Virus record (IMG/VR): IMGVR_UViG_3300012936_004598
Span: 1 to 39,230 of that record
DNA: 39,230 nt
Reading direction: 5' to 3' (one strand)
Source of the DNA: a virus
How positions within the stretch are numbered: position 1 is the first letter of the stretch; the number at the start of each line of letters is the position of its first letter. Positions 5-28,909 of the stretch are shown here, in pieces. A model generated the notes under the pieces. It was not told the origin of the DNA. It made no database searches and saw only the letters and a list, made by a program, of their open reading frames with translations. Made by a program: the position numbers and the translations under genes.

Positions 5-568
5 TCATTTCTTCTCCTCATATAAGTAATCAATAACAAAAACATTCTTTTCTTTTCTAGTTGGGTACGATCCATGTAATACCGTACTTTTAAAAATAAG
101 CACATCACCTATATTTGGTTGATAACTTAAATCGTGTGTATTACCCATACCGTCATATAAAAAAGCAAACGTTGCTCCGTGTGACGCTGATTTGTCTTCG
201 TCTGGTTCAGTTAGATAACATACCGCACTTATTTTATTTACACTTTGATCGCTGTGTCTATGTGCTTTCTGCCATCCGCCTTTTTTATAATCAACTATCC
301 ATAGAGCGCATAAGTCTGTTAGTTCTATATTTAACCCTACTTCATCTATCTTCTCTTGTAAAAATGGTTTGTATTTCCATTCGTTAAGATATGCTCTTGG
401 ATGTATATTAAATTGTTGTCCTCTGTATGTGCTTGTTTGATCGCTTACATCTTCTCTTGTATCTTTTGGAAAAACTTTTTTATCCCAGTGGTATAAAAAT
501 TCTTCACTATCAGGATAGTGTGTTTCTATAATCCATTGATGTTGATTACCTAATAAGTGTGTCTTCAT
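5..568 (-). CDS. 2-oxoglutarate/Fe(II)-dependent oxygenase-like protein
   Basis: This 187-residue protein resembles the 2OG-Fe(II) oxygenases common in marine T4-like phages. Visible candidates for the iron triad are H105-x-D107 (in AHRHSD) and H165 (in VLHGSYP), with R171 placed to bind 2-oxoglutarate. The surrounding strand pattern (GDVLIF before the distal His, NVFVIDY after the Arg) fits a jelly-roll fold. The substrate is unknown; phage members of this family have been proposed to hydroxylate proteins or nucleobases. The ATG overlaps the stop of the upstream zinc-finger gene (ATGA), so the two are translationally coupled. The gene is complete, ending four bases from the window edge. Confidence 0.8.
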   Translation of the reverse strand: MKTHLLGNQHQWIIETHYPDSEEFLYHWDKKVFPKDTREDVSDQTSTYRGQQFNIHPRAYLNEWKYKPFLQEKIDEVGLNIELTDLCALWIVDYKKGGWQKAHRHSDQSVNKISAVCYLTEPDEDKSASHGATFAFLYDGMGNTHDLSYQPNIGDVLIFKSTVLHGSYPTRKEKNVFVIDYLYEEKK

Positions 569-1251
569 AAGTTTGATTCCTTTGCTACTTCTTTAACAGT
601 CGCAACATCTGCTTGTTTACGTTTGAACTTAATAGCCCAGTGTTGTGGATCAATAATCATACTTACAAATCCTAGTTGCTCATCGTTAAAATTTGATAAC
701 ATTTGTTTTCCTGTTTTACAATTTAAGACTAGCCAAGGACTTACTTTGCCATCTTTAATATCTCTAACAGCTCTATTTAAACTTACATATTCAAAGTAAT
801 CATTCCAAGCGGCTTCTTTTTCTTCGCCCCATTCCATCATAGTAGTAATTGATCTTTTAACTGCTGTTTCCATATCTTCTTTTAATACAAATTCAATAAC
901 GTACTTTTCATACAATTCATCTCTACACCAGTGGTCAAGTTTTACTCTACTTGTTACGACATGATCAATATAACGCTCAGGATATAGAGGGCGCACATTA
1001 TTGATAAACGACCCAAACTTGACGAAAGCATTGTAGTACTGCGAGTTACAAAAGTCTTCATATGTTTTTTCTTTCTTAGTGCCTGCGCTAAGTTTATAAA
1101 ATCTTTGAAACGCATAAAAGCCGACTTGTACACGTTTTTCATTTTTTTGTAATGCTCTACGTTTCTTTTCACACATATGTACTGCTAAAGTTTTTTCTCT
1201 AACAAAACTTGCTCCGCAGTATTCGCATACGTAGGGTTTAGATGTCGACAC
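565..1251 (-). CDS. Conserved marine T4-like phage protein with N-terminal zinc finger
   Basis: This gene encodes about 228 residues and has no assigned function. The first 30 residues carry a zinc-finger-like pattern, C9-x2-C12-x12-H25-x-C27 (CEYCGASFVREK...HMC), followed by a basic stretch (KKRRALQKNEKR). The remainder is an all-alpha-looking domain rich in aromatic residues. I recognise it as a protein conserved in T4-like cyano- and pelagiphages, so it is probably core rather than cargo. The open frame extends to a TTG at 1317, but that would overlap the upstream gene by 80 bases. A GTG at 1251, just before the conserved finger and overlapping the upstream stop by 14 bases, is the more likely start. 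A nucleic-acid-binding role is inferred only from the finger. Confidence 0.7.
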   Translation of the reverse strand: MSTSKPYVCEYCGASFVREKTLAVHMCEKKRRALQKNEKRVQVGFYAFQRFYKLSAGTKKEKTYEDFCNSQYYNAFVKFGSFINNVRPLYPERYIDHVVTSRVKLDHWCRDELYEKYVIEFVLKEDMETAVKRSITTMMEWGEEKEAAWNDYFEYVSLNRAVRDIKDGKVSPWLVLNCKTGKQMLSNFNDEQLGFVSMIIDPQHWAIKFKRKQADVATVKEVAKESNL

Positions 1252-1699
1252 TTTTCTTATCCATCCCGTATGCTTCTCCAAGGGCATACAATTCTTTTTT
1301 TGTAGATATTTTAGCAAGTAATTCTACCTCATCTTTTTTCATATTAGGAAAAAGTTTTTCTAAAAACTTTACACTTTTACTATTTGATCCGCTTTTCTTT
1401 TTGTGGCCAATCCATTCATGATATTCTATTTTGCCAGTGTTGCCACTTATACATAATAGTTGCCAAAGTAATTTTTTATGTTTTTGTAATGTAAAAAAGT
1501 TTTTGTTGTAGTATTCATTTGTTTTGAATACAGCAAGTTCTGCTTTTTCTCTGTTTCCTTTTACACTACTTACATATCTGTTCAACAAATAAAAACTAAC
1601 TTGTTTCTTTTCATCATCGGACAATTCGTCCCACACTTCTAAACCGCCCATGTCTATTGCGGCAAGTATATCTTTTAGAGGAAGTTTTTTCTGCGTCAT
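1238..1699 (-). CDS. Conserved marine T4-like phage protein, function unknown
   Basis: This gene encodes about 153 residues. The N-terminal half is helical and rich in aromatic residues (W, FYLLNRYVSS, KLLWQLLCISGN); the C-terminus holds the motif VKFLEKLFPNMKKDEVELLAKISTKKEL split over two helices. The upstream TTG at 1720 lacks a ribosome binding site. The ATG at 1699 has GAAGG about nine bases before it and is preferred. Similar proteins sit beside the zinc-finger gene in marine T4-like phages. A distant relationship to the small clamp-loader subunit gp62 is conceivable from the W...NRYVS pattern, but I do not consider it established. It is the first gene after the promoter at 1725-1753. 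Confidence 0.65.
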   Translation of the reverse strand: MTQKKLPLKDILAAIDMGGLEVWDELSDDEKKQVSFYLLNRYVSSVKGNREKAELAVFKTNEYYNKNFFTLQKHKKLLWQLLCISGNTGKIEYHEWIGHKKKSGSNSKSVKFLEKLFPNMKKDEVELLAKISTKKELYALGEAYGMDKKSVDI

Positions 1700-1724
1700 T
1701 TGTTTACAACCTTCATACAATAAA

Positions 1725-1769: not shown

Positions 1770-2747
1770 TCATCTGTATTTCTCTCTTACTAATCTAACA
1801 AATAATTTTACATTTTCTTCAGGAGTTGTTTTATCTATTCCGTGTCCTAATCCGCAAACCCAACCTGTGTCATCTATTGCTTCCATTTTATCTAAAAACT
1901 GTTGTATACTTTTTCTACATTCTTGTTCGCTTTGTAACAGCAGAGATTCATCAAAGTTGCCTTGTATAAAACCTTTTTTGTATTTTTTAAAAGCATGAAC
2001 AATATCTACAGAACTATCAAGTCCTAGTCCAGACCAATTCATTTTATACAGTGTAGGTAAACATCTTTTATTAAGTTCCTTTGTATAGTATCCTGTGTTT
2101 TTCATTACTAACGGTTCAAGTAAATCTACATAGTATTTTTTAAAATACATTTCGCTCATATTAGATACACCGCTATCAAGTATCATTACTTTTTCTGCGC
2201 CAGCACGTAATTGTAAATCTATGTTGTTTACTAGTAAAGGAACTATTACATCTTTTAAATATTTTGTTTTCCATTTTAAGGATACGTTTGTTTTTTTACC
2301 TGTAGCATAATTAAGTAATGTCCATGGACCTCCTACAAATCCTATAAGACTTTTACTAGCAGGCAATAAATCTAGAGTGGCTTTGATTGCCTGTGCTTGA
2401 AACTTCATATGTTTAGATGCTTTATCTACATTAGAATGATCTTTATAATTTTCTTCATTTATAAACCATTCAAACTTAGGACCTGGATCAAATTTTAAAG
2501 GAACTCCTAATCCTTCGATGGGAAATAAAATATCACTAAACAAGATAGCAATATCAAAATCAAAATCTTTTATTGGTAACATTGCTGTTTGTGCGGCTAG
2601 TCTTGGCAATTTACACATCTGCTCAAATGTAAATCGATCTTTCATTTCCATATAACTTTTTTGATATCTGCCAGCCTGACGCATCATCCATATAGGTGGA
2701 CATTTTTGTTCTATTCTATTACAAGCATTATTAAACTTTTCGTTCAT
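1770..2747 (-). CDS. hemE: Uroporphyrinogen decarboxylase
   Basis: HemE removes four acetate carboxyls from uroporphyrinogen III to give coproporphyrinogen III in haem biosynthesis. At 325 residues it is slightly shorter than bacterial HemE (about 340-355) and appears complete. Diagnostic motifs are present in order: PIWMMRQAGRY (R23, R27), ILFSDIL (catalytic-type D72), GGPWTLLNYATG (Y147), ILDSG (S192), QGNFDESLLL, and the C-terminal LGHGIDKTTPEENVK (H302). The active-site residues of characterised URO-D (Arg, Asp, Tyr, Ser, His) are therefore all kept. The MRQAGRY and LGHGI motifs distinguish it from MtaA-type methyltransferases of the same fold. Its ATG overlaps the end of kdsA by 17 bases. 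A haem-pathway enzyme in a T4-like phage is unexpected. Confidence 0.93.
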   Translation of the reverse strand: MNEKFNNACNRIEQKCPPIWMMRQAGRYQKSYMEMKDRFTFEQMCKLPRLAAQTAMLPIKDFDFDIAILFSDILFPIEGLGVPLKFDPGPKFEWFINEENYKDHSNVDKASKHMKFQAQAIKATLDLLPASKSLIGFVGGPWTLLNYATGKKTNVSLKWKTKYLKDVIVPLLVNNIDLQLRAGAEKVMILDSGVSNMSEMYFKKYYVDLLEPLVMKNTGYYTKELNKRCLPTLYKMNWSGLGLDSSVDIVHAFKKYKKGFIQGNFDESLLLQSEQECRKSIQQFLDKMEAIDDTGWVCGLGHGIDKTTPEENVKLFVRLVREKYR

Positions 2748-3501
2748 ATTGATACTTTACTATATCGTCAATTACTGTTTCAAAATCTTCTAGTCTAAGC
2801 ATATTAGGTCCATCACTTGGAGCATTATCTGGATCTGTGTGAACTTCTATGAAGAAGTTTTTGATTCCGAGCGCGGACGCGGCTCTGGCCAATGGTGGAA
2901 CGTAAGATCTATTTCCACCTGACGATCCACCCAAGCCTCCAGGTTTTTGAACGCTGTGTGTAACATCATAAACAATATCGGCATCAACATTATTAAGCAT
3001 ATAATCAAGTCCTGTAAAGTCAGTAACCAATGTGTTGTATCCAAAGCTAGTACCCCTTTCTGTAATCCAAACTTCTTTCGCACCTTTTGTTTTACTTAGT
3101 ATTCCCTGGACATCCCAAGGTGCTAGGAACTGTCCTTTTTTAATATTAACTATACAATCTGTTACACAAGCACGTTGTATTAAATCAGTTTGTCTACACA
3201 AGAAAGCAGGTATCTGAATTACATCTACAATAGTATCTACCCATTTCACTTGTTCAACACTATGTACATCTGTCAGTAGTTTTATACCAAGCTCCATTTT
3301 CATTACAAGGAAATCTGTCATTGTCATGCCAGCACCTATACCTCTTTTGCCATCTATGCTTGATCTATTTGCTTTGTCATAACTTGCTTTGAAATAATAA
3401 TCTATTCCGTGTTTATCACAAACCCTTTTACACTCTTTAGCAATAATAGTGCTATGTTCTAGTGATTCATGCTGACATGGTCCTGCTATAACCTTAATCA
3501 T
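2731..3501 (-). CDS. kdsA: 3-deoxy-D-manno-octulosonate-8-phosphate synthase (metal-dependent type)
   Basis: KdsA condenses phosphoenolpyruvate with arabinose-5-phosphate to form Kdo-8-phosphate, precursor of Kdo in lipopolysaccharide inner core and some capsules. The 256-residue protein has the full signature set: AGPCQHES, FKASYDKANRSS, TDVHS, QIPAFLCRQTDL, NIKKGQFLAPWD, TERGTSFGYNTLV, DVTHSVQKPGG and IEVHTDPDNAPSDGPNML. C9, H182, E219 and D230 match in type and spacing the metal ligands of metallo-KdsA (Cys11, His185, Glu222, Asp233 in the Aquifex enzyme); Escherichia coli KdsA has Asn at the first position. It is a little shorter than the E. coli enzyme (284) at the N-terminus. It overlaps hemE downstream. 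Upstream, its start (ATGATTAA) would overlap the restored end of the FkbM gene. Confidence 0.95.
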   Translation of the reverse strand: MIKVIAGPCQHESLEHSTIIAKECKRVCDKHGIDYYFKASYDKANRSSIDGKRGIGAGMTMTDFLVMKMELGIKLLTDVHSVEQVKWVDTIVDVIQIPAFLCRQTDLIQRACVTDCIVNIKKGQFLAPWDVQGILSKTKGAKEVWITERGTSFGYNTLVTDFTGLDYMLNNVDADIVYDVTHSVQKPGGLGGSSGGNRSYVPPLARAASALGIKNFFIEVHTDPDNAPSDGPNMLRLEDFETVIDDIVKYQYERKV

Positions 3502-3543: not shown

Positions 3544-4032
3544 CTATTTCTCGCAAAAGGTTGATACTTTCTCGTACTTGCCATTCAACTTACTTTCAAA
3601 CATTATTACTGGCTTACATCTTAATAATGTTTGTACACTTCCCTCTAAAATTTCTAATTCATAATCTTCTACATCTATTTTAATAAAACTAACATTATCT
3701 ATATTAAAACTATCAAGTGTTGTTTGTTCTACTAACCAACTTTTTACGCCCTCACTAAATCTACTAACACTACCTTGACTGTAATCTATTTTTCTTTTAT
3801 TAGGGATAGTTAATTCTACCATATCGTTTTTGTTACCTAATGCGTAATCAAAAACTTTAATTGTGTCTGGTATATTTTTGACTGTTTCTGGATTTGGTTC
3901 AAATGCGTAAACTCTTTTAAACTTGTCTAACAAAGGAATACATGTGTCGCCTTTATATGCTCCTACATCAATGTATGTATGAAAGTTTTTTACATATGGA
4001 ATGGCATATTCGTTAATCTTGTTTATACTCAT
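3544..4032 (-). pseudogene. FkbM-family methyltransferase, C-terminus lost to a 1-base frameshift
   Basis: The 162-residue reading frame matches FkbM-type SAM-dependent methyltransferases: motif I IDVGAYKGDTC (about residues 20-31), VYAFEPNPETV, TLDSF and the conserved FIKIDVEDYELEILEG, then PVIMFE. FkbM proteins methylate sugars or other small acceptors, often in polysaccharide loci. The frame stops at a TAG just after KVSTF. In the -1 frame the DNA goes on with LREIGYTLERFKEETVAHYD and stops at 3494-3496, giving a normal FkbM end that overlaps the kdsA start as ATGATTAA. Adding one T to the T4 run at 3555-3558 restores it. The core domain is intact, so it might retain function. Either a real mutation or a sequencing error is possible. 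Confidence 0.8.
3555..3558 (-). other. Probable frameshift site in a T homopolymer
   Basis: The minus strand reads ACCTTTTGCGAGAAATAG. One additional T in the run would give codons for S-T-F-L-R-E-I-G-Y and keep the frame open to 3494. This is the simplest single-base change that joins the two halves of the FkbM protein. Confidence 0.75.
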
Positions 4033-4279
4033 CTTTAACCACGTAATACAAATTTACTAATTTTTCTAATTGTTTTTTTAATGTTACATTTTTTTGAGCT
4101 ATATCGCACAAGTTTTGCCACTCGCCGTAATCTAAAAGTTTACCTTGTGCTCTAGCTACTCCTCCCGGATCACCGCCTATTATCCATCGTGGTATTTCGG
4201 GCTTGTCACGATATCGAGCGAACACAACACCGTTGGCCCGCTCGTATATCAATTTTTCATTGGGTAATAAATCACCCAT
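4013..4279 (-). CDS. Small hypothetical protein
   Basis: This gene encodes 88 residues and I do not recognise it. The N-terminal half is rich in charged and aromatic residues with a YERANGVVFARYRDKPEIPRW stretch (residues 12-32) and a glycine-rich turn (IIGGDPGG). The C-terminal half looks helical (QKNVTLKKQLEKLVNLYYVVKDEYKQD). There is no signal peptide or membrane segment. Its ATG overlaps the stop of the permease gene (TAATG) and its 3' end overlaps the FkbM start by 20 bases, so it belongs to the same operon. A similar text pattern appears in small proteins of T4-like marine phages, which suggests a phage rather than a host origin, but no function can be given. Confidence 0.7.
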   Translation of the reverse strand: MGDLLPNEKLIYERANGVVFARYRDKPEIPRWIIGGDPGGVARAQGKLLDYGEWQNLCDIAQKNVTLKKQLEKLVNLYYVVKDEYKQD

Positions 4280-5571
4280 TAAACAGCAACAAAGTAAATT
4301 ACACTCACTACTGCGATAGCAATACTACCAGCATTTAGATCAGCTGTACGTCCGCTTAATGCTTTGATTACAGCGTATGTAATAAAGCCTAAAGCAATAC
4401 CATGTGCGATACTAAACGTCAGAGGCATAAGCACAGCCGCTAGTACTGCTGGAGCATATTCTGTAACATCATCCCAATCGATGTCTGCGATGTTGCGTAA
4501 GAAATATGTAGCAATAAAAATTAAAGCTGGTGCTGTAGCAAAAGCAGGAATACTTTGTGCTAGTGGCGCTAAAAATAAACAAGCACCAAACAAGATAGCA
4601 ACAACTACTGCTGTAAGTCCTGTCTTGCCACCTTCTTTAATACCTGCTCCACTTTCAATATATGAAGTAGTATTTGATGTTCCTACAAGAGCTCCTGCTG
4701 AGGTTGCTACGGAGTCTGCTAGTAATGCTCTATCGATTCCTTCTACCTCACCATTTTCATTTACTTTTCCGGTTAAGTTAGCAACACTTGTTAGTGTTCC
4801 TGCTGTATCAAAAAAGTCAACAAATAGAAAAGCAAAAGCAGTACCAATAAATCCTGCTGTAGCAATCATACTAAAGTCTAAACTAAAAGCATGATCTGGA
4901 TTAGGAATAGCACCTGCTACGCCGCCAAGTTCTGAAATGCCTGTTACCCAAGCAATAGCAGACACAGCAAGGATACCAAGAATGATTGCTCCTGGTACTT
5001 TACGTTTATCTAAAATAGCCATTACAATAAATCCTAGTCCTGTAAGTAAAACTGGCCAACTTGTAACATCACCTAAGCCAACAAGTGTGGCAGGATTGTC
5101 TACTACAACTCCGGCATTCTTCAAACCGATAATAGCAAGGAATAAACCAATACCTGCGCCTACTCCTAGTTTCATAGATTTAGGAATACTGTTAATAATA
5201 TACCTACGTGCTGGTGTTACACTTAAAGCAATAAACACTAAGCCTGCTACAAATACAGCCGCTAGTGCTTGTTGATATGTGTATCCCATACCAAAGATCA
5301 CACCAAATGTAAAGAACGCATTAAGTCCCATACCTGGTGCTAGTGCTACTGGCCAGTTAGCCCATAGTCCCATAATCAAAGTACCAATTACAGCGGCAAT
5401 GATTGTTGCCGTGAATACAGCGCCGAAGCCCATGCCTGTTCCTTCAGTTGAAAGAATTGCTGGGTTTACAACAGTAATGTAAGCCATTGTCAAGAATGTA
5501 GCAATACCTGCCATTACTTCTGTTTTCACGGATGTGCCGGCCTTAGTAAGACCGAATAGTTTATCTAACAT
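4279..5571 (-). CDS. NCS2-family (AzgA/PbuG-like) purine permease
   Basis: This 430-residue integral membrane protein has roughly twelve to fourteen hydrophobic segments. It starts MLDKLFGLTKAGTSVKTEV and continues with GIATFLTMAYITVVNPAIL, the N-terminal signature of the AzgA branch of nucleobase:cation symporter-2 proteins, which take up adenine, guanine or hypoxanthine with protons. Other family marks are ALAPGMGLNAFF, KLGVGAGIGLFLAIIGLKNAG, VDFFDTAGTL and the substrate-binding-type region GTSNTTSYIESGAGIKEGGKTGLTA. It is full length with no lesion, and the ribosome binding site GGAGAG lies a few bases before the ATG. Its local GC looks higher than that of its neighbours, partly from Ala/Gly content. 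It would sit in the host inner membrane; exact purine specificity cannot be read from sequence. A transporter of this kind in a phage is unusual. Confidence 0.93.
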   Translation of the reverse strand: MLDKLFGLTKAGTSVKTEVMAGIATFLTMAYITVVNPAILSTEGTGMGFGAVFTATIIAAVIGTLIMGLWANWPVALAPGMGLNAFFTFGVIFGMGYTYQQALAAVFVAGLVFIALSVTPARRYIINSIPKSMKLGVGAGIGLFLAIIGLKNAGVVVDNPATLVGLGDVTSWPVLLTGLGFIVMAILDKRKVPGAIILGILAVSAIAWVTGISELGGVAGAIPNPDHAFSLDFSMIATAGFIGTAFAFLFVDFFDTAGTLTSVANLTGKVNENGEVEGIDRALLADSVATSAGALVGTSNTTSYIESGAGIKEGGKTGLTAVVVAILFGACLFLAPLAQSIPAFATAPALIFIATYFLRNIADIDWDDVTEYAPAVLAAVLMPLTFSIAHGIALGFITYAVIKALSGRTADLNAGSIAIAVVSVIYFVAV

Positions 5572-9146: not shown

Positions 9147-9175
9147 ATTATAAACTATTTTAGTTTAGAAGTCAA
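9147..9175 (-). promoter_or_regulatory. Sigma70-type promoter of the uvsW operon, inside the end of the previous gene
   Basis: The minus strand has TTGACT (9170-9175), a 17-base spacer and a perfect TATAAT (9147-9152). The -35 box lies in the last codons of the upstream glycan gene. With normal spacing, +1 falls at or beside the A of the ATG at 9140, leaving no room for a ribosome binding site. It separates the uvsW block from read-through of the glycan island. Confidence 0.75.
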
Positions 9176-10006
9176 GCGTTTAAGTGGAATTCCTTGAGAA
9201 ATTTCTTCTATTGTCCATTCAGTATGTGCGTAGTCATTAAGCCATTGTTGCCTATCTGGACGTATTGGGTCCTCTATGTTTCGCATATCATTTATATTAT
9301 TTGCTACAGGATAAGCAAGACTGCTAGGACCGACAAAGGCAGGAACACCAGCAATAATACTATGTATACCAGGGTTACTTGACCAACTTACTGTTGCCCA
9401 AATATTATCAAATCCTAAATTGAAATCATCGTAAGTACCATTAATATATTGCGGTTCACGTCTAATAACATTAAGTAATCCGCGTTCAATGTGTTCTAAT
9501 CTACAACGAGGATGAGGTCTAAAAATTATGGTTCTACTTGTATACTTACGTATCTCATCATATGTATCTAAAAACCAATTGCTCATGCGTGACATATTTG
9601 TCCATTGTAAACTTTTATCATGTTGCCCGCATACTAATATAAATTCACCTTGATGTGTCCAAGGTGTTAACGTAATACCAATATTATTGCTACGACTATT
9701 GTCATTACCACTAGGCCCGAAGTAAGCATCTCTATTAATTCCATTCAATCCAACTTTCCATGTATTCCCTCTTTTAATGCCGCCTACTTCAAGTACTATT
9801 GTTGGTCGTTCTTGTCGTTGGTTTGCTTCCCATATAGCACGGTTTCCACCCATGCGACCGTTGAAAAGTACGCTCCATATAACATCAATGCCATCAGTAT
9901 CATCAACGACAACATCATGCCCAAGAGCAGTAGCGCCAGCATGAAAGGCATCAAAAACAGGCTTACTATTAAGGGCACCGTATCTCGCATGTAAATTAAA
10001 TTTCAT
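9155..10006 (-). CDS. Capsule-synthesis-like glycan protein (paralogue 1)
   Basis: This 283-residue protein resembles capsule-polysaccharide synthesis proteins with a GT-B-like C-terminal half. It has IIFRPHPRCR (about 159-168), then ATVSWSSNPGIHSIIAGVPAF, a donor-site-like S-x-x-x-x-H/A-x-x-x-x-GVP pattern, and ends with W-T-x-E-E-I-S-Q-G. The same C-terminal plan is shared by the genes at 10829, 11751 and 21323, so this is a four-member paralogous family. Proteins of the PF05159 type (KpsS/KpsC) are Kdo transferases in group 2 capsules, which would fit the kdsA gene in the window, but that assignment is an inference. It is the last gene of the glycan island; its end carries the -35 box of the next promoter. 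Confidence 0.7.
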   Translation of the reverse strand: MKFNLHARYGALNSKPVFDAFHAGATALGHDVVVDDTDGIDVIWSVLFNGRMGGNRAIWEANQRQERPTIVLEVGGIKRGNTWKVGLNGINRDAYFGPSGNDNSRSNNIGITLTPWTHQGEFILVCGQHDKSLQWTNMSRMSNWFLDTYDEIRKYTSRTIIFRPHPRCRLEHIERGLLNVIRREPQYINGTYDDFNLGFDNIWATVSWSSNPGIHSIIAGVPAFVGPSSLAYPVANNINDMRNIEDPIRPDRQQWLNDYAHTEWTIEEISQGIPLKRLTSKLK

Positions 10007-10841
10007 TCCAATATGACTCAGTTCTACTCACCATTAAGTCCTTTTGTAAACTTTTGCCTTCTTTCTTCCTTCCGCCTTTCATATGGTCCATCCATTTACC
10101 TAAAGGACCATTTATTAACGGATGCCCTCCGCCTCCAGTTTTTGCTTCGCGCAAATACATATTAGCACTGTAATCTAATACATTATTATCAATTGCTTTC
10201 AATTGGTTAAGTATGTGTCCGAACACAAAACTATCGTGCCATTCGTCTAATTCAAATATACCATTATTGGCATCTTCATAAAATCTTTCAAACTCTTTTA
10301 AAAACTGTACACACATAGGATGTTTTAAATTCATTCCATAAAATCCACACTCTGGCCATGTTTGCGATCCTTTGCCTCTACCTACATATGTAATCCATTT
10401 GTCGTTTGGTAATAAATCTTTGAACTGATCATAGCTCCAGTTTGTATGAATGAAGCTATCAGCATCCATCCAAACGCACCAATCTTCGCTTCGTTCACAA
10501 GCATCAAACACAGCATAAGTCTTGTTGGCAAAACGTATTGCGTCCCATTTGAACTTTTTATGCCAATCTCTTGGACGTCTTACTTTGATATGATCTGGTG
10601 GAATACCATTTGCTTTTGGATCATTTCCCCAGCGTGATTTAAATTCATTTAGTTTTGGTAATGCTTCAAAAGCATCAAATACTTTAATATTTTCAGCATT
10701 TACTGTAGGTGTACATCCTTCTGCGTATACAAGCAAATTAATTCTATTATCTACTCGTTGAGCAAAACTATCTAAAAATCTTTGACCGTATTCGTCTAAT
10801 CCTGGTTTGTGGAATGTTGTTAGTACTGTTATTTTTTCCAT
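9996..10841 (-). CDS. Glycosyltransferase-like protein with DxD motif
   Basis: This gene encodes 281 residues from the ATG at 10841, which has GAGAG seven bases before it; a longer frame to 10868 is less likely. The start MEKITVLTTFHKPGLDEYGQRFLDSF is typical of a GT-A Rossmann-like nucleotide-sugar fold, and WCVWMDADSFI supplies the metal-binding DxD. Downstream, ECGFYGMNL and ELDEWHDSFVFGHIL hold acidic residues suited to acceptor binding or catalysis. The protein is probably soluble or peripheral and uses a nucleotide sugar; its acceptor is unknown. It overlaps both neighbours by about 11-13 bases. Confidence 0.75.
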   Translation of the reverse strand: MEKITVLTTFHKPGLDEYGQRFLDSFAQRVDNRINLLVYAEGCTPTVNAENIKVFDAFEALPKLNEFKSRWGNDPKANGIPPDHIKVRRPRDWHKKFKWDAIRFANKTYAVFDACERSEDWCVWMDADSFIHTNWSYDQFKDLLPNDKWITYVGRGKGSQTWPECGFYGMNLKHPMCVQFLKEFERFYEDANNGIFELDEWHDSFVFGHILNQLKAIDNNVLDYSANMYLREAKTGGGGHPLINGPLGKWMDHMKGGRKKEGKSLQKDLMVSRTESYWNEI

Positions 10842-11770
10842 ACGTATTCTCTCATGTGTTTCCAACATTCACCTGTTCTTAATTCTTCTAGTGTCCAATG
10901 GCTCATTGCCAATCTTCTTAGCCAGGCTTCTCTGTCAAAGTCATAGTTTATATCATGCATTTTAGCCAAGTTAGTATTTGCTACGTCACGTGCTTGACTC
11001 CTACTAGGATCTAAAACAAATATAGGAACTCCTTCAATGGCCGCCGCAACAGCCGGGCTACTATTATAACTTACTACAGCATAGGCGTCATGTAAATCTT
11101 TTATAAGTCCACTTGAAGGAGAACTAACTTGTACTTTATGTCCTATTGCTTTAAGTTGCATAATATGTTTATCTATTTTTTTATCGCCTGGATGAAACCT
11201 TACTCTAATTGGCTTGTCAGTAAATCTCTTTAAATTTTGTAATAACGGGTGTAACCAATTAATTACTTTGAGACCATCCATACTCCAACCGCCATCTCTT
11301 TGACAAGTTATTAAAATATAGTCGCCATATTTTTTCCAAGGCTTCAATTGTATGCTAAGCCTATCTCTAAGTTTGCCCCAACGTTCTGGCAATATTTTAT
11401 CATCACAGTATTCACCTGTATTAGGAAATATACCATCAAAACTATATCTTAAATATGTGTTTACGTTTTTGGGATCATATGCTAAAAATAAATTAGCATC
11501 AGCTATTACAGTTCTACCACCTATACTTTCTTGTCCTGCTAACACACGCCTACGTAAATCAAGATGTGGCACATGTTTACTACCAGGATGAACAAAACCT
11601 TGTAAGACAGCAACCTCACTTGCTTCATATTGGAATGTATTAATTATTTGTCCTGTGTCTCCAGCTTTTACTGCTCCTTCAACAAAGTTTTGAATTAATT
11701 GTGGCTTTTCTGGATTTTTATTTCCTGGAGGGATAGCTTTTAGATAAGCGTTAACCTTTAATTGCTTCAT
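10829..11770 (-). CDS. Capsule-synthesis-like glycan protein (paralogue 2)
   Basis: This 313-residue protein belongs to the same family as those at 9155, 11751 and 21323. It shows IRVRFHPGDKKI (about residues 195-206), followed by AVVSYNSSPAVAAAIEGVPIFVLDPS, and the family ending W-T-L-E-E-L-R-T-G-E-C-W-K. The N-terminal half (KVNAYLKAIPPGNKNPEKPQ, then FQYEASEVAVLQGFVHPGSK) is distinct, as expected if the acceptor differs. The role would be sugar or phosphosugar transfer in assembling a surface polysaccharide. It is translationally linked to its neighbours through short overlaps. Confidence 0.7.
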   Translation of the reverse strand: MKQLKVNAYLKAIPPGNKNPEKPQLIQNFVEGAVKAGDTGQIINTFQYEASEVAVLQGFVHPGSKHVPHLDLRRRVLAGQESIGGRTVIADANLFLAYDPKNVNTYLRYSFDGIFPNTGEYCDDKILPERWGKLRDRLSIQLKPWKKYGDYILITCQRDGGWSMDGLKVINWLHPLLQNLKRFTDKPIRVRFHPGDKKIDKHIMQLKAIGHKVQVSSPSSGLIKDLHDAYAVVSYNSSPAVAAAIEGVPIFVLDPSRSQARDVANTNLAKMHDINYDFDREAWLRRLAMSHWTLEELRTGECWKHMREYVWKK

Positions 11771-12629
11771 CGTACAACTTCTCCCCTTCTATAAGTTTCC
11801 AAGCAAGACCTGAACGCATTTCATCTAATCTGTATTGGCAGTAAGCGAGATAATGTAACAATTTAACAAACTCAGCATACTCTGGATAATGTGGATCTTC
11901 TATAGCTTCCAAACTTTTGTTAGCAAGTGAATCTACACAATTAGGAGCCATTGTAAAAGCAGGTATTCCATAGTGCATAGCTTCAAGTGCCGCCATACTT
12001 TGATATGTTACTACTGCCCAAATTTGATCTCTCATACATTGTGCGGCTACACTATTTTCTTTTATTCTAGCTGGACGCAAACCTTTGTTTCTTACAATTA
12101 TTTCTCTTTTTGTATATTTTCTAATTTCAGCAACAGTATCACTTACCCATTTATCTCTATCAATATTGTAAAATTGACATGGCTTTTCACTAGGTGTAAC
12201 AAGTAGTATTGGACCATTTTGTAACTTTAAAGGCTTTCTACCATGGTATTGCATATATGGAGCAAATCGTTGTAGTTGTTCAAATCTATCACCCGGCATG
12301 TCTTTAAACTTTGTGTGTTGGATATTATTTTTTACTACACGATAATATTCTTTACGCTTCATTAAGTTACCCATGTAACCATTATCTATGTAATAAAACG
12401 GACGACCTGTTTCCCAACATTTCCAAATTTCTTTCCGTTTAGTCATGCTACGAAAAGATACAGGTATATCGTTAGGCCAAGGACTTTCAGTAATCTTACT
12501 GCTAATATCTTTTCTATCTATAAGACAAGCACCAGTTCCATACTGCCAGTGCTTCATAATTTGGTCATCACCGTCTAAGTATAACATTCTTGGCATTTGT
12601 CCAAACTCTTTTGTTTTGTATCTTTCCAC
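11751..12629 (-). CDS. Capsule-synthesis-like glycan protein (paralogue 3), GTG start
   Basis: This gene encodes 292 residues. The start is GTG, lying immediately after the stop of the previous gene (TAAGTG) with GAGG five bases further upstream, so the choice is well supported. The central motif FYYIDNGYMGNLMKRKEYYRV is closely matched in the protein at 21323 (FFHIDNGYIGN...YYRI), making these two the closest pair in the paralogous family. The GT-B-like C-terminal half has VVTYQSMAALEAMHYGIPAF and ends R-L-D-E-M-R-S-G-L-A-W-K. A glycosyl- or phosphoglycosyltransferase role is inferred. Confidence 0.7.
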   Translation of the reverse strand: MERYKTKEFGQMPRMLYLDGDDQIMKHWQYGTGACLIDRKDISSKITESPWPNDIPVSFRSMTKRKEIWKCWETGRPFYYIDNGYMGNLMKRKEYYRVVKNNIQHTKFKDMPGDRFEQLQRFAPYMQYHGRKPLKLQNGPILLVTPSEKPCQFYNIDRDKWVSDTVAEIRKYTKREIIVRNKGLRPARIKENSVAAQCMRDQIWAVVTYQSMAALEAMHYGIPAFTMAPNCVDSLANKSLEAIEDPHYPEYAEFVKLLHYLAYCQYRLDEMRSGLAWKLIEGEKLYDEAIKG

Positions 12630-13310
12630 TTATACCTCGTCTTCCATCATATTATATAACTCTGTTTTCCATTCAGCATGAAATTCACAATCTCTATAAT
12701 TTTCAAACCAAGGACCACCTTCTGTATAATGGATTAGTTTTGGATGAGATATGTCGTCATATACTCCGACTAGATAATTCCATGTGTGACTTATACTGCC
12801 TACTTCTTCATCTTTTAACCAACTAAACCTATGTAGATATGCTCCTGTTACTGTAGGATCATTTACTAGTTTTTGAGTAACAACTTTATTACTTGGATGT
12901 CCACAATTCCATAACACCATGCTTGACCAATTTTTACGCGGATAGATAGTTTGTTTTTGCCCATCCATTTTAGTACCTTCTTCGACTTTGTAGTCATGTT
13001 GTACGCACATTACAGCATACTTGTCATCAGCTTCATCAAACAATTCTTGGATATCTGTTGTAAGGATCATGTCACTGTCCATAAACACTGCCCAACCTTT
13101 ATAGTCTGTAAGTTCGGGTATAAGAAAACGTGTGAATGTAAATTCTGTTGATGCCAGTTTATCAACCGGGCGTGTATACATTCCCGCATCTCTTAGTTCT
13201 TGTTGCTTTAATGGTCGCACGTCTGCTTCTGGATTACGTGCTATAATACTATGCTTACATACTTGATAAGCAATATCTTCTCTAGTGTCATAACCTACAA
13301 ATACTTTCAT
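12630..13310 (-). CDS. GT8-like glycosyltransferase
   Basis: This 226-residue GT-A glycosyltransferase is of a type common in marine T4-like phages and in marine bacteria. It opens MKVFVGYDTREDIAYQVCKHS and has LASTEFTFTRFLIP, the metal-binding motif FMDSDMI (D78, D80), YPRKNWSSMVLWNCGHPSN and the C-terminal HYTEGGPWFENYRDCEFH. The family transfers a hexose from a nucleotide sugar with retention; the product is unknown. The ribosome binding site AAGG lies just before the ATG. Only one base separates it from the nucleotidyltransferase-cupin gene, so both would be read from the late promoter at 14088-14095. Confidence 0.85.
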   Translation of the reverse strand: MKVFVGYDTREDIAYQVCKHSIIARNPEADVRPLKQQELRDAGMYTRPVDKLASTEFTFTRFLIPELTDYKGWAVFMDSDMILTTDIQELFDEADDKYAVMCVQHDYKVEEGTKMDGQKQTIYPRKNWSSMVLWNCGHPSNKVVTQKLVNDPTVTGAYLHRFSWLKDEEVGSISHTWNYLVGVYDDISHPKLIHYTEGGPWFENYRDCEFHAEWKTELYNMMEDEV

Positions 13311-13311
13311 A

Positions 13312-14082
13312 TTACCTTCTTTCTATATCTTCTTCTATACAGTTCTTTCCATACTGTATTTCAACTAATTTTAAATCTGTATCATGTTCGTTGGCAAGTT
13401 GATGCCAGGTGCCTTCCGGAATATGTAAACTGGAGTGTTGTTTATATACGCCTAATATTTCTTGGTCTGTTGAAGCATTAAGTGTATATACTGTTGCTGT
13501 ACCTTCTGCTACAAACCAATGTTCGCTACGTTCTTTATGACGTTGCATTGATAATCTATTTCCGGGAGGAACTGCTAGTTCCTTTACTTTAGTTTGTTTT
13601 TCATATTCATGTATCACTCTATAGTACCCCCAAGTTCTCACTGTTTTAGGTGCTTTCCATTCATCAAGTAACCAACTACTAGAATTCATTTTATTTTCTC
13701 CGCCAACTCCAAAAACAAATTCAACATCACAAATATCATTATAGGTTTTGTATTCAGGAGTAGTTGTATTAGTTCGATCACCTCCGTTGGCAAAAATAAT
13801 TTTACATCTAGAATTAGTTGCTAGTGTCTTATATATAGCACCGCAAGCACTACCGTCTTTGTCATCAAAGCTCAAAACTTTATCTACACAAGATAAGTTT
13901 TCTATAATTGTTGCTCTGTCTTTGAATGGCATAAAAGGTCTTCCTTTTTTATTTGTTAGCCATTCATCTGAATTAACTCCAACGTGTAATTCATCGCCTA
14001 GTTCTTTTGCGGCTTTAAAATATTCTATGTGTCCAGAATGAAGAGGATCGAAACCGCCTGTAACTAATACGATGTTTTTCAT
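13312..14082 (-). CDS. Nucleotidyltransferase fused to a mannose-6-phosphate-isomerase-type cupin
   Basis: This 256-residue, two-domain protein starts with a cytidylyl/adenylyltransferase-like domain (about 1-145): GGFDPLHSGH with the HxGH motif H15-H18, a KDRATII helix and NSSSWLL in place of the usual ISST motif. Such domains activate sugar phosphates, as in HldE/RfaE and TagD. The second domain (about 165-250) matches the cupin of type II phosphomannose isomerases: PPGNRLSMQRHKERSEHWFV (H182, H188) and IPEGTWHQLAN (H227). The pair suggests one polypeptide that isomerises and activates a sugar for the island. A TATAAATA late promoter sits exactly five bases before the ATG with no ribosome binding site. 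Confidence 0.83.
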   Translation of the reverse strand: MKNIVLVTGGFDPLHSGHIEYFKAAKELGDELHVGVNSDEWLTNKKGRPFMPFKDRATIIENLSCVDKVLSFDDKDGSACGAIYKTLATNSRCKIIFANGGDRTNTTTPEYKTYNDICDVEFVFGVGGENKMNSSSWLLDEWKAPKTVRTWGYYRVIHEYEKQTKVKELAVPPGNRLSMQRHKERSEHWFVAEGTATVYTLNASTDQEILGVYKQHSSLHIPEGTWHQLANEHDTDLKLVEIQYGKNCIEEDIERR

Positions 14083-14087
14083 ATAGA

Positions 14088-14095
14088 TATTTATA
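14088..14095 (-). promoter_or_regulatory. T4-type late promoter inside the glycan island
   Basis: The minus strand reads TATAAATA, the exact T4 late -10 octamer, followed by TCTAT and the ATG at 14082. It lies in the only real gap (20 bases) of the island. It would provide late transcription of the six genes from 14082 down to 9155. There is no ribosome binding site between octamer and ATG. Confidence 0.7.
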
Positions 14096-14102
14096 TACGC
14101 AC

Positions 14103-14762
14103 TTATTTACTTGTTGTTGATTTGATGCCTTGAACTTTTGTGTAGTATGGTTTGTGTACTCTAAGCCATGGACATAGTTGTTTACACATTATAGCATCAT
14201 TAGGCCACCAGCCAATATTATTTTGTAGTTCTATAATTTTTTTAGCACCTTCTGGCTTTATAATATAAGCACTATGTCCTGGAAGTCCTTGTGGAATACT
14301 TTCATCAGCTACCCAAGGAACTTCTTGTACGCCATTACTGTGTAATTTATTATATAACTTTGAATTGAAGGTAGCATGATCAGGGTCGTTAATGCTTATT
14401 GCTAATCCCTCAAACTCAAAAGGAATAAATTGTTTGGTGAAAATAGCATCATGTTCTAAAATGATAATAGGATTGTTTTCTTCTACACACTTTTGCCAAA
14501 GCCTATAATGACTGCCAGCCGCCGCAATACGTTTTGTCATATCATATGTTTTGTATGCCTTTAGTGTCATACCAGTAGTAGGACATTTTACTTTTTTTCT
14601 ATAAGGCCATTTCCAATTTACTTCCCACATCGACTCAGGAGTTATAGCATCAAACTTTTGTACATCTATTTCTGAATGTGTATCAATAATTGATTGAATA
14701 CACTTATCAGCATGTTTTTGACTGTCTTCGTGTCCTGGTATAGATATTATGTAAGCTCTCAT
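14103..14762 (-). CDS. GT25-like glycosyltransferase
   Basis: This 219-residue protein starts at the ATG that overlaps the preceding stop as ATGA (14759-14762). It resembles GT25 (LPS beta-galactosyltransferase-type) proteins: MRAYIISIPGHEDSQKHADKC at the start, a conserved GSHYRLWQKCVE helix, ILEHDAIF as the metal-site strand, and a C-terminal GLPGHSAYIIKPEGAKKIIE with WWPNDAIMC. It is likely to add one sugar to an oligosaccharide acceptor. A related protein is encoded at 19249-19815 in the same island. Confidence 0.8.
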   Translation of the reverse strand: MRAYIISIPGHEDSQKHADKCIQSIIDTHSEIDVQKFDAITPESMWEVNWKWPYRKKVKCPTTGMTLKAYKTYDMTKRIAAAGSHYRLWQKCVEENNPIIILEHDAIFTKQFIPFEFEGLAISINDPDHATFNSKLYNKLHSNGVQEVPWVADESIPQGLPGHSAYIIKPEGAKKIIELQNNIGWWPNDAIMCKQLCPWLRVHKPYYTKVQGIKSTTSK

Positions 14763-15460
14763 GTTATCATTTCCGCAAAGCCATGTACACTGTGATGTAT
14801 GTCGTTCCAAGGCTGGCTACATAGTTGATACCAACCCCATTGTGCTGGATATAGTTTGTGTTCTTCAGCAAACTCTCTAGCAGATCTATGATGAAAGTGA
14901 TGCCTTCTATGTATTATTAAATCGCTGGGCATATAACCAAACCAATCTCCTGCTTTATTATTTTTATCTTCTTCCTGCCATTTGCCACTTCCAAATTGAG
15001 GGCCTCTGTTTTTTCTTGTCATAAACCCAACAGGCCCTTTTTCATATGCTACTCTAATCCAATGTTGTATATCTACACGTTCATCTAATCTTGTATTCCA
15101 ATCTACCCTTACAATCAAATCAAAATGTGCTGGTATTTTTTTCAAGTGATCGGCGTGTGCGAGTATAGGAACTATTCCAAAATATTGTGTATCTTTAAGT
15201 TTAGGGTCTTCAGCATATATTTTATACTTTTCATGTTTAGACATTGGAGTAACATCCATTGGATGATAATGCCAACTAGGATAGTGCATAGTAGATAATC
15301 TGTCATGATACTCTTTTGGTATAAGATGTGTTTTATTTGTAAATGTATGATAATAAAAATTTACGCCAGTAAATTTATTTTTAAGTTGTTCTACAATATT
15401 AGAACCCTTATCATTTACACCTGATATACAAATTGCTATATTCAATTTTTTTCTATCCAC
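14759..15460 (-). CDS. Probable glycosyltransferase-like protein (unassigned family)
   Basis: This gene encodes 233 residues if started at the GTG at 15460, although no strong ribosome binding site is seen and the exact start is uncertain. The N-terminal strand LNIAICISGVNDKGSNIV, the central FDLIVRVDWNTRLDERVDI (a D-x-x-x-R-x-D pattern in the position of a metal site) and many aromatic and His residues recall WavE/DUF-type LPS synthesis proteins. I could not assign it to a defined family. It overlaps the SGNH gene upstream by 19 bases and the GT25 gene downstream by four, so it is part of the coupled operon. Confidence 0.6.
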   Translation of the reverse strand: MDRKKLNIAICISGVNDKGSNIVEQLKNKFTGVNFYYHTFTNKTHLIPKEYHDRLSTMHYPSWHYHPMDVTPMSKHEKYKIYAEDPKLKDTQYFGIVPILAHADHLKKIPAHFDLIVRVDWNTRLDERVDIQHWIRVAYEKGPVGFMTRKNRGPQFGSGKWQEEDKNNKAGDWFGYMPSDLIIHRRHHFHHRSAREFAEEHKLYPAQWGWYQLCSQPWNDIHHSVHGFAEMIT

Positions 15461-23920: not shown

Positions 23921-24910
23921 TTACTGATTGTTCTGTCTAGCACGAATCATTGAAAGAATGTCTTCGGCTTTATTACCGTCACTTGTCGGAGCCGCTTCAG
24001 CTGTTGGTGCTGGAGTTGCTTCTGCCGCTGGAGCAGTTTCTGCTACTGGAGCAGGAGTTGCTTCAGGTGCTGGTGCCGGTGTTGGTGTAGTTGCCGCTGG
24101 TGTTACAGGATCACCTGTTCTAGCCGCCATTCCCGCTGGACGGAAATATTGACCCCAACGATCCGCATCAAATGCTTCGCCATCAACTGACGCTTCAAAC
24201 ATTTCTTGCATTACTTTCACTTCAACTTCACCTGGCTTCTTAGGAAGGAAGTCATTTAGATTATACAAGCCATTTGTTTCGATAGCTTTCATTTCAACGT
24301 CTGAAAGTGGACGCTCTCTACGAGCCCAGTTAGATGTTGAATAGTCTGCGTAACCGCCTTTTGAAGTTTTATTAAGACGGAAATCAACTCCAGCAGTATA
24401 ATCTGTTGGCAGTTCTTCCATGTCTGGATCCATAAGTGCTTGCTTTATGATCTGGAAGATTTGAGGACCAATAATAAATCTACGAATTGGATTTTCTGGA
24501 GTAGAATCTTCACCTAGTGGATTCTCCGTTACAAATCCTTGGAAGATATATGAACGCTTCTTCCAATATTTACGACCCATGTCCTCTAATGATGGGTCTT
24601 TGAACCAACCACGAACTTCGTTCAAAATATTACAAGTTTCATTATACATTTCCATACAAGGAATCTGTACTTGACAAGGTTTGCTACCTGTGTCACCTTT
24701 AATTCCTGCGAATGGAAGTTTGATCATCAAACGTTCTTTCCAAAAGAAAGTGTTTGATTCGTCTCCGTCTGGGAGAAAACGCATAACGGAAGTTTGTCCT
24801 TCCTGCATATTCCAAAATGGGTAAATTGCGTTATCACCACCTGATGAATTGCCACCTGTGCGTGATTCTTGTTCTTTGAGCTTTGCTCGGATTTCTGCTA
24901 ATGATGCCAT
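23921..24910 (-). CDS. 32: gp32 single-stranded DNA-binding protein
   Basis: This 329-residue protein is of T4 gp32 size (301) plus a long linker. The core includes PFWNMQEGQTSVMRFLPDGD (31-50), FFWKERLMIKLPF, the cysteine segment C79-C85-C93, RKYWKKRSYIFQGFV (113-127) and NPIRRFIIGPQIFQII. T4 gp32 binds zinc through His and three Cys; here three Cys are seen but no obvious His, so metal binding is uncertain. Residues about 268-309 are an Ala/Pro/Thr/Glu linker, leading to a short conserved end, KAEDILSMIRARQ. AAGGAGG lies 7 bases before the ATG. The promoter region has two dyads and a leader hairpin. Confidence 0.92.
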   Translation of the reverse strand: MASLAEIRAKLKEQESRTGGNSSGGDNAIYPFWNMQEGQTSVMRFLPDGDESNTFFWKERLMIKLPFAGIKGDTGSKPCQVQIPCMEMYNETCNILNEVRGWFKDPSLEDMGRKYWKKRSYIFQGFVTENPLGEDSTPENPIRRFIIGPQIFQIIKQALMDPDMEELPTDYTAGVDFRLNKTSKGGYADYSTSNWARRERPLSDVEMKAIETNGLYNLNDFLPKKPGEVEVKVMQEMFEASVDGEAFDADRWGQYFRPAGMAARTGDPVTPAATTPTPAPAPEATPAPVAETAPAAEATPAPTAEAAPTSDGNKAEDILSMIRARQNNQ

Positions 24911-27322: not shown

Positions 27323-28909
27323 CTAATAGCCGCTCGTAACGAAGATTGGCATTGGTGGTTCATAGTCTTCTAGTTCATTTTCTGTTTGAGAAAATGTGTT
27401 ATATACTCTCGGATCCCAGTCTTTAATTACATTCATCATACGTAAAGCCAACAACGTAGCACTAACTAGATCGTCTGTAGCTCCTGGTTTTGCTTTGAAA
27501 CTTGTTCCTGTTGCTACAAAGTTTTTAAGTTCACTTAATAATACCGCACTATTAATTTTTAATTTTTCATTTTCAACCATTGTCTTTAATCTACTACAAG
27601 CAGTAATTTTTGTACCATGTGTAGTGTTAAATCCTTTACGAAACTTTCTTACATGTCCTTTACGCTGTGGTTCACTTACAAATAAGCCTGGTATATTTTC
27701 TTCTCCAAAGTCGTTAATTACAATAAGTGCGGCTTCTCCAATACTGTTATTTTCAACACTCCAGTATATATTACTACCGTTGTTCTTACACTCAGTTTGT
27801 ATGTGGTTACATATATCTGCCATTACTCTAATTTGTTGTGGTATAGGAGTTTCATTATGTCTCCACTCGGCAACCTGAATATAATTTGGCAGTTCAAAAA
27901 CTTGTATAGCGGCGTAATCTCCTCCTGTACCCATACTAGGATCTAAAGCAATAGCGTAAGTTTGATTTCCGTCTAACTTCTTAAACCATCTTGTTTGCCC
28001 CATATTCATGATAGGTTCTGAGCCTTCAAGTGTGCTTAATTTTATACTGTTAATTAGTGTTTCGTCATATACTAAAAATTCACAACCATATTCACGTCTA
28101 AATCTTTCTTCGCCAATACGTCCAATTTCTTCTTTTTTCCAATCTTCATCTCTATCAGGATGTTCGTCCCAATCACATGTAAATCCATGAAAACCGTTTA
28201 TACCTACAGTTTGCTCATGGCCATAATCATCATATTTGTTTTGGCTGTCTTTCCAAATAAGAGCAAAGGTATCTTCATCTGAGTTTGGTGTGCTTGTAAT
28301 AATAGCACGACCACCCGTTGCTAGTGTAGGAGATATTGAAGTCCAAAACTCGTCAGCAATACTAGGATTAACGAAAGCAAACTCGTCACAGTATAACAAT
28401 GATATACTCATACCACGTCCTGTATTACCTGTTGTTGTAGCACTTACAATACGTGAACCATTTTCAAATTCTATACTACCTTTATTATAGGACACTACTC
28501 CTGCTCTAATATGATCAGCACAAGTTTCATAAACATAACGTATACGTTGCATGATTTCTTGTGCGCCACTATATTTGTGGGCGGCAATAAGTATAGTTTG
28601 ATCAGGATGAAACATAGCATACCAAGTTAGATATACAGCGGCACAAGTTGTTTTGCCCGTTTGTCTTGGTAACATGTTTACATTAAATCTATGATTGTGA
28701 TATGATGCTAGTAAACGTTCTTGATAATTATATGGCTCAAATAATAACTTACCTTTGACAGGATGCTGTATATAAGCAAATTGTTTAGCAAATTGTAAGT
28801 ATCCCAGATCAGGATCCATACACATAGCAAGTTCTGCTATCTGCGATTCAGAAAACGTCTCTCTTTTATTTGCTTTCTTGGTGAGAACACCGTCTAGACT
28901 CTTACTCAT
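27323..28909 (-). CDS. 17: gp17 terminase large subunit
   Basis: This is the 528-residue DNA-packaging motor (T4 gp17 has 610). ATPase domain: Walker A PRQTGKTT (81-88), Walker B LLYCDE (171-176), motif III-like TSTPNS. Nuclease domain: D323 in ALDPSMGTGGDYAA, E386 in SVENNSIGEAAL, and D479/D480 in ATDDLVSATLLALR, matching the acidic triad of RNase H-type terminase nucleases. It pumps DNA into the prohead and cuts the concatemer. It is preceded by a terminator and its own late promoter GTTAAATA five bases before the ATG, with no ribosome binding site. Confidence 0.96.
   Translation of the reverse strand: MSKSLDGVLTKKANKRETFSESQIAELAMCMDPDLGYLQFAKQFAYIQHPVKGKLLFEPYNYQERLLASYHNHRFNVNMLPRQTGKTTCAAVYLTWYAMFHPDQTILIAAHKYSGAQEIMQRIRYVYETCADHIRAGVVSYNKGSIEFENGSRIVSATTTGNTGRGMSISLLYCDEFAFVNPSIADEFWTSISPTLATGGRAIITSTPNSDEDTFALIWKDSQNKYDDYGHEQTVGINGFHGFTCDWDEHPDRDEDWKKEEIGRIGEERFRREYGCEFLVYDETLINSIKLSTLEGSEPIMNMGQTRWFKKLDGNQTYAIALDPSMGTGGDYAAIQVFELPNYIQVAEWRHNETPIPQQIRVMADICNHIQTECKNNGSNIYWSVENNSIGEAALIVINDFGEENIPGLFVSEPQRKGHVRKFRKGFNTTHGTKITACSRLKTMVENEKLKINSAVLLSELKNFVATGTSFKAKPGATDDLVSATLLALRMMNVIKDWDPRVYNTFSQTENELEDYEPPMPIFVTSGY

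What the first reader, a model, noticed from the sequence alone, without database searches (positions are those of the whole stretch)
1770..2747. A complete-looking haem-pathway enzyme (HemE) in a T4-like phage
All residues known to matter in uroporphyrinogen decarboxylase are kept (R23, R27, D72, Y147, S192, H302), so it is likely an active enzyme. Haem or tetrapyrrole genes in phages are known mostly for bilin and cobalamin steps (for example ho1, pebS, cobS). HemE would push precursor flux towards haem or chlorophyll in the host.
Basis: partly seen in the sequence, partly recalled or inferred. Interest (0 to 1): 0.8.

Follow-up and report, generated by a model that had tools for sequence, protein, structure and literature searches.

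The report
Haem-pathway enzyme gene in marine phages
A fragment of a very large bacterial virus carries a working-looking gene for one step of haem (blood-pigment) synthesis, and its relatives carry most of the other steps too, which suggests that several groups of probably marine viruses keep their host's haem supply running while they multiply.

Summary
The gene is real: minus strand, 1770-2747, 325 aa, URO-D fold, every cited catalytic residue present. It is HemE, not an MtaA-type methyltransferase (207 vs 25 bits; AlphaFold2 model matches solved UROD structures first). It sits in a conserved phage gene block (kdsA-hemE...), so the contig is not a chimera. dN/dS among relatives is about 0.15.

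The window is a fragment of a jumbo, PA5oct/Phosso-like phage. HemE relatives occur in at least 98 IMG/VR stretches on several unrelated phage backbones. Many carry hemE with hemC and hemF; some add hemB and alaS. The window's nearest kin contig (collinear gene block) has alaS, hemE and hemH. Two records add hemJ and haem oxygenase. HemD was never found.

The phage HemE clade groups (99/98 support) with HemE of one order of small, AT-rich alphaproteobacteria, probably HIMB59. One other phage took an ordinary HemE independently.

Best reading: an active auxiliary metabolic gene pushing uroporphyrinogen III to coproporphyrinogen III so that haem synthesis continues during infection. Activity, expression and host are untested. 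Phage alaS, and hemC/hemF in one sentence of one paper, are published; I found no report of phage hemE, hemB or hemH, or of the cassette.

The parts
1770..2747 (-). hemE, uroporphyrinogen decarboxylase, 325 aa; catalytic residues R23, R27, D72, Y147, S192, H302
2731..3501 (-). kdsA, KDO-8-phosphate synthase, 256 aa, directly upstream; the hemE start overlaps its end by 17 nt, so the two are probably co-transcribed. kdsA-hemE adjacency is conserved in relatives, most of which also have kdsB after hemE
1238..1720 (-). conserved phage gene of unknown function downstream of hemE (PHROG 11758), same order in relatives
565..1317 (-). conserved phage gene of unknown function (PHROG 11058; weak C2H2 zinc-finger match below Pfam cut-off), same order in relatives
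5..568 (-). 2OG-Fe(II) oxygenase, phage type (PHROG 81), same order in relatives
3544..4032 (-). FkbM-type methyltransferase; in relatives it lies after hemE/kdsB, here it lies upstream of kdsA and no kdsB is present
27323..28909 (-). terminase large subunit, 54% identical to PA5oct-type jumbo phages: identifies the record as phage
23921..24910 (-). gp32-like SSB, 48-58% identical to jumbo phages PA5oct and Phosso

Best explanation
The gene encodes an active uroporphyrinogen decarboxylase. During infection it converts uroporphyrinogen III, supplied by the host (HemD in particular), to coproporphyrinogen III. This keeps flux in the haem branch, and away from sirohaem and cobalamin, while host gene expression is being shut down, so that respiratory haem proteins and ATP supply are maintained. 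It is one member of a pool of haem-pathway genes (alaS, hemB, hemC, hemE, hemF, hemJ, hemH, not hemD) that several unrelated phage lineages acquired from bacteria and exchange with each other. Shown by sequence: the gene, its intact active site and predicted fold, purifying selection, conserved phage context, co-occurrence with other haem genes, and common descent with one alphaproteobacterial order. Inferred: activity, expression during infection, direction of flux, benefit to the phage, host identity.
For: Full-length URO-D match and intact catalytic residues. AlphaFold2 model pLDDT 92.5, with UROD structures as the 24 best PDB matches. dN/dS 0.05-0.22 in the 30 closest pairs, median 0.15 over 191 pairs. 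Conserved phage context in more than 20 contigs. Adjacent hemC and hemF in many relatives, over their NCBIfam cut-offs. Gene run hemF-hemC-hemE-hemB. alaS in 12 of 50 phage records and hemH in the nearest kin contig. HemJ in two records. An independent phage acquisition of an ordinary HemE, 404 bits.
Against: No biochemical or expression data. The score is below the NCBIfam equivalog cut-off (207 vs 303 bits), although cellular HemE proteins of the same short lineage also score 210-230. In the window itself only hemE is seen, because the record ends 1.8 kb downstream; the wider set is inferred from relatives. Many kdsA-hemE contigs show no other haem gene in the DNA held. The host is unknown.
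Confidence: 0.72

Rival explanations
1. The phage haem genes feed a haem oxygenase, so the purpose is bilins or iron release rather than haem for respiration.
For: Haem oxygenase lies about 1.5 kb from hemJ in G008 and G017, which also carry hemE-hemF-hemC, and a HemO-like match lies in G006. Known phages pair alaS with hemO and a bilin reductase (PMC11480375).
Against: A haem oxygenase was seen in only three records in the DNA examined locally, none in the window or in the G003 stretches read. hemH in G003 points to haem as an end product. No systematic search for bilin reductases was made.
Confidence: 0.13
2. HemE acts as a safety valve: when host enzymes decline, it removes photoreactive uroporphyrin(ogen) before it damages the cell in sunlit water.
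For: HemE alone would drain uroporphyrinogen; several phages carry hemE without other haem genes in the DNA held.
Against: Co-carriage of alaS, hemB and hemC would increase, not reduce, porphyrinogen load.
Confidence: 0.07
3. The protein has drifted to another reaction of the URO-D superfamily, such as methyl transfer (MtaA/CmuA type).
For: Score below the HemE equivalog cut-off; about 31% identity to ordinary HemE.
Against: All UROD catalytic residues kept; MtaA models only about 25 bits; MtaA structure 4ay7 ranks after every UROD structure, E 3.4e-12 vs 1.2e-21; cellular homologue L016 lies in a haem gene cluster; linked to hemC and hemF.
Confidence: 0.04
4. Assembly chimera or bacterial contamination at this point of the contig.
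For: No isolated phage in INPHARED carries it; hits there look like bacterial DNA.
Against: Same kdsA-hemE order in over 20 contigs; collinear gene block with G003; GC3 of hemE close to neighbours; clade distinct from every cellular sequence found.
Confidence: 0.01

Closest known systems
Cellular HemE (URO-D family PF01208 / TIGR01464)
   Same: Fold, catalytic residues and full-length alignment
   Different: 325 aa, about 31% identical to ordinary HemE and 43-49% to the short lineage of Bdellovibrionota and some small-genome alphaproteobacteria; below the equivalog cut-off; human Arg50 position is Lys
Phage alaS (vAlaS) cassettes, Wegner et al. 2024 (PMC11480375)
   Same: Phage-carried tetrapyrrole-synthesis gene in aquatic phages, presumed to sustain haem or tetrapyrrole flux
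   Different: That work concerns ALA synthesis with hemO and pcyA/X; its main text has no hemC or hemF, and uroporphyrinogen only as an intermediate. Here the mid-pathway steps are present and alaS occurs in the same records
Pelagimyophage 'deep ecotype' genes, Zaragoza-Solas et al. 2020 (PMC7029224)
   Same: One sentence reports coproporphyrinogen oxidase and porphobilinogen deaminase in a pelagimyophage
   Different: No hemE, hemB or hemH is mentioned there and the genes are not analysed
Cyanophage ho1, pebS, pcyA; cobS/cobT
   Same: Phage auxiliary genes of tetrapyrrole metabolism
   Different: Those act after haem or in cobalamin synthesis; hemE acts upstream of haem

Membership tests
HemE / uroporphyrinogen decarboxylase | URO-D (beta/alpha)8 fold over the full length | tested here: met
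   Pfam 2-322 of 325; AF2 model, UROD structures are PDB hits 1-24, TM about 0.86
HemE / uroporphyrinogen decarboxylase | Catalytic residues equivalent to human R37, R41, D86, Y164, S219, H339 | tested here: met
   R23, R27, D72, Y147, S192, H302, invariant in 13 phage sequences
HemE / uroporphyrinogen decarboxylase | Arg at the position of human R50 (a usual substrate contact, not an absolute criterion of the family) | tested here: not met
   Lys36, invariant in 13 phage homologues; a conservative change
HemE / uroporphyrinogen decarboxylase | Groups with HemE rather than MtaA/CmuA | tested here: met
   207 vs 25 bits; structure ranking; no MtaA rows were put in the trees
HemE / uroporphyrinogen decarboxylase | NCBIfam annotation threshold of TIGR01464 (302.95 bits; a naming cut-off, not a biological feature) | tested here: not met
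   207 bits; cellular short-lineage HemE, one of them in a haem gene cluster, also score only 210-230
HemE / uroporphyrinogen decarboxylase | Decarboxylates uroporphyrinogen III to coproporphyrinogen III | not testable with these tools
   needs an enzyme assay or complementation
Phage auxiliary metabolic gene | Encoded in a phage genome in a conserved phage context | tested here: met
Phage auxiliary metabolic gene | Homologous to host metabolic genes and under purifying selection | tested here: met
Phage auxiliary metabolic gene | Expressed and alters host metabolism during infection | not testable with these tools
   no transcript or metabolite data here

The most novel reading that the evidence does not exclude
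Several unrelated phage lineages of (probably) marine bacteria, including jumbo phages, carry a modular, exchangeable and collectively near-complete haem biosynthesis pathway (alaS, hemB, hemC, hemE, hemF, hemJ, hemH) that leaves only HemD to the host, so that such phages take over haem production in the infected cell.
Probability: 0.45. Interest if true: 0.8.

Novelty: new member of a known kind. Interest (0 to 1): 0.62.

Why it matters
Phage genes that keep photosynthesis or nucleotide supply running are well known; for non-photosynthetic ocean bacteria the metabolic bottlenecks of infection are far less clear. A widespread, selected and repeatedly acquired set of haem-pathway genes would mark haem supply, and so respiration, as such a bottleneck. 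It gives a specific enzyme to assay and a clear prediction: the HemD step is left to the host.

Tried and rejected
MtaA-like methyltransferase: rejected. Chimera or contamination: rejected. Isolated phages carrying hemE, hemC or hemF in INPHARED: every hit looks like bacterial DNA deposited as phage. Viral structure library BFVD: no match at E<=0.001. PHROGs: no family for phage HemE, HemC, HemF or KdsB. HemD in phage records: none of 37. Typical SAR11 as donor: the order whose member G427 has SAR11-like 16S mostly has ordinary HemE, so rejected for this gene. A single donor for hemE and hemC: not supported; HemC of G490, close for HemE, ranks far below others and the HemC tree shows no clear donor. 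A wider scan for HemF relatives used poor seed patterns and found only the two known ones.

Full report
OBSERVATION. The ORF lies on the minus strand at 1770..2747 (325 aa, ATG start); the plus strand there has no long frame. Pfam URO-D covers residues 2-322 at E=3.1e-63. NCBIfam hemE scores 207 bits against 25 for MtaA/CmuA models. The Arg that is Arg50 in human UROD is Lys36 in the phages (human numbering from memory).

WHAT CARRIES IT. The window is a whole IMG/VR virus record of 39,230 bases. Its terminase is 54% identical to PA5oct-type jumbo phages, its SSB 48-58% to PA5oct and Phosso, and it has phage UvsX and tail-sheath proteins. It is thus a fragment of a jumbo phage with T4-type genes. 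Nearly all long genes run on the minus strand; hemE starts 17 nt inside the end of kdsA (KDO-8-phosphate synthase, over its cut-off).

NOT A CHIMERA. kdsA-hemE is seen in more than 20 IMG/VR contigs, mostly followed by kdsB and the same downstream genes. The window shares a collinear block of about 12 genes, most at 52-90% identity, with record G003. GC3 of hemE (0.19) is like that of its neighbours (about 0.20-0.30).

SELECTION AND FOLD. Nei-Gojobori dN/dS among 191 phage pairs with dS below 1.5 has a median of 0.15; pairs with the window itself are near saturation in dS. An AlphaFold2 model from 36 sequences has pLDDT 92.5 and pTM 0.91 (its query lacked Met1). Its 24 best PDB matches are all uroporphyrinogen decarboxylases; MtaA of Methanosarcina comes next at E 3.4e-12. 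No protein of the viral structure library matches at E<=0.001.

RELATIVES. A scan with the 13-sequence alignment found 98 viral stretches encoding HemE relatives; HemC gave 194. Around them: (A) kdsA-hemE-kdsB, the window's type; (B) gp47-gp46-hemE-(hemF)-hemC, whose gp46 is about 50% identical to PA5oct; (C) hemF-hemC-hemE followed at once by hemB; (D) hemE-hemF-hemC in other backbones. HemC (227-269 bits, cut-off 164), HemF (300-310, cut-off 297), AlaS (560, cut-off 339) and HemH (208, cut-off 125) pass their NCBIfam cut-offs; HemB is a clear match below its own (171 of 297) but over the Pfam one. HemB is in 6 of 36 phage records, AlaS in 12 of 50, HemH in 1 of 36, HemJ in 2 of 45. HemD is in none of 37. 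Records G006, G011 and G037 hold alaS, hemB, hemC, hemE and hemF. G003, the window's nearest kin, holds alaS, hemE and hemH; its hemH lies about 10 kb downstream of hemE, a stretch the window does not reach. G008 and G017 hold hemE-hemF-hemC, hemJ and a haem oxygenase, and G008 a P450. These are fragments, so absence proves little.

EXCHANGE BETWEEN PHAGES. G006 shares only hemE (70%) and kdsA (71%) with the window, and in the trees type A and type C HemE interleave (L116 with L118, L107 with L109). The gene therefore moves between unrelated phage backbones.

ORIGIN. In a careful tree the phage HemE sequences join HemE of one alphaproteobacterial order with 99/98 support, inside a 'short HemE' lineage that also holds sequences from the phylum of an Oligoflexia genome (called Bdellovibrionota here) and stands far from ordinary alphaproteobacterial HemE (100/100). 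The Oligoflexia member lies in a haem gene cluster (HemL-like ORF upstream, HemN- and HemG/HemY-like ORFs downstream, read by eye). Members of this lineage that are certainly cellular score only 210-230 bits with the HemE model, so the phage score below cut-off is a lineage trait. The order in question has genomes of at most 1.6 Mb and 28-30% GC around hemE in four loci checked. One further phage, L091, has an ordinary HemE of 404 bits, nearest to alphaproteobacterial HemE (95/90): an independent acquisition beside viral-type hemC and hemF. HemC does not point to the same donor as HemE, so the cassette looks assembled from several sources.

MECHANISM. Shown: gene, residues, fold prediction, selection, context, co-carriage. 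Inferred: the enzyme is active; it takes uroporphyrinogen III made with host HemD to coproporphyrinogen III; with host or phage HemF, HemJ and HemH this yields haem. The likely benefit is keeping respiratory haem proteins supplied when host expression fails. The kds neighbours concern the cell-surface sugar KDO and need not be functionally linked.

PRIOR WORK. In a library of open papers I found phage alaS with hemO/pcyA/X (PMC11480375) and one sentence on coproporphyrinogen oxidase and porphobilinogen deaminase in a pelagimyophage (PMC7029224). Searches for phage hemE, hemB and hemH found nothing. Some surveys report viral ahbD and unspecified 'heme biosynthesis' genes. Most subscription papers, and all preprints, are missing from that library, so priority cannot be claimed.

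VERDICT. It is a new step in a known kind of phage auxiliary gene; the wider multi-gene set is the more interesting result and deserves bench work.

Noticed in passing
window 4279-5571 (-): NCS2-type purine/xanthine permease (Pfam Xan_ur_permease, 171 bits) that also matches PHROG 27398, labelled 'tail protein', at 450 bits: that PHROG label looks wrong. Several relatives have a different membrane protein at this place.
   Followed up: partly
window 9155-22102 (-): A run of about 18 genes, many glycosyltransferase-, sulfotransferase- or methyltransferase-like by eye: a sugar-modification island whose target is unknown.
   Followed up: no
L229:17841-19001; G003:C1:1471-2640: Phage 5-aminolevulinate synthase (TIGR01821, about 560-570 bits) in the same records as phage hemE.
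   Followed up: yes
L227:7381-8493 (-): Ferrochelatase gene in the window's nearest kin contig, about 10 kb downstream of hemE.
   Followed up: partly
L245:9728-10975 (-) and L245:16151-16741 (+): Cytochrome P450-like and haem oxygenase genes in a phage record that also has hemE-hemF-hemC and hemJ: possible consumers of the haem.
   Followed up: partly
L229:13384-14448 (-): Fatty-acid desaturase (Pfam, 100 bits) near the hemF-hemC-hemE-hemB-alaS region of a phage.
   Followed up: no
L082: HemC is split into two ORFs (179 and 62 aa) in this phage contig: decay or a sequencing error.
   Followed up: no
L010-L014 and others, HemC: Phage HemC is 245-256 aa in most phages, lacking most of the C-terminal domain (profile ends at 258 of 293), but keeps the HSLKD motif and a conserved Cys that may bind the cofactor.
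   Followed up: partly
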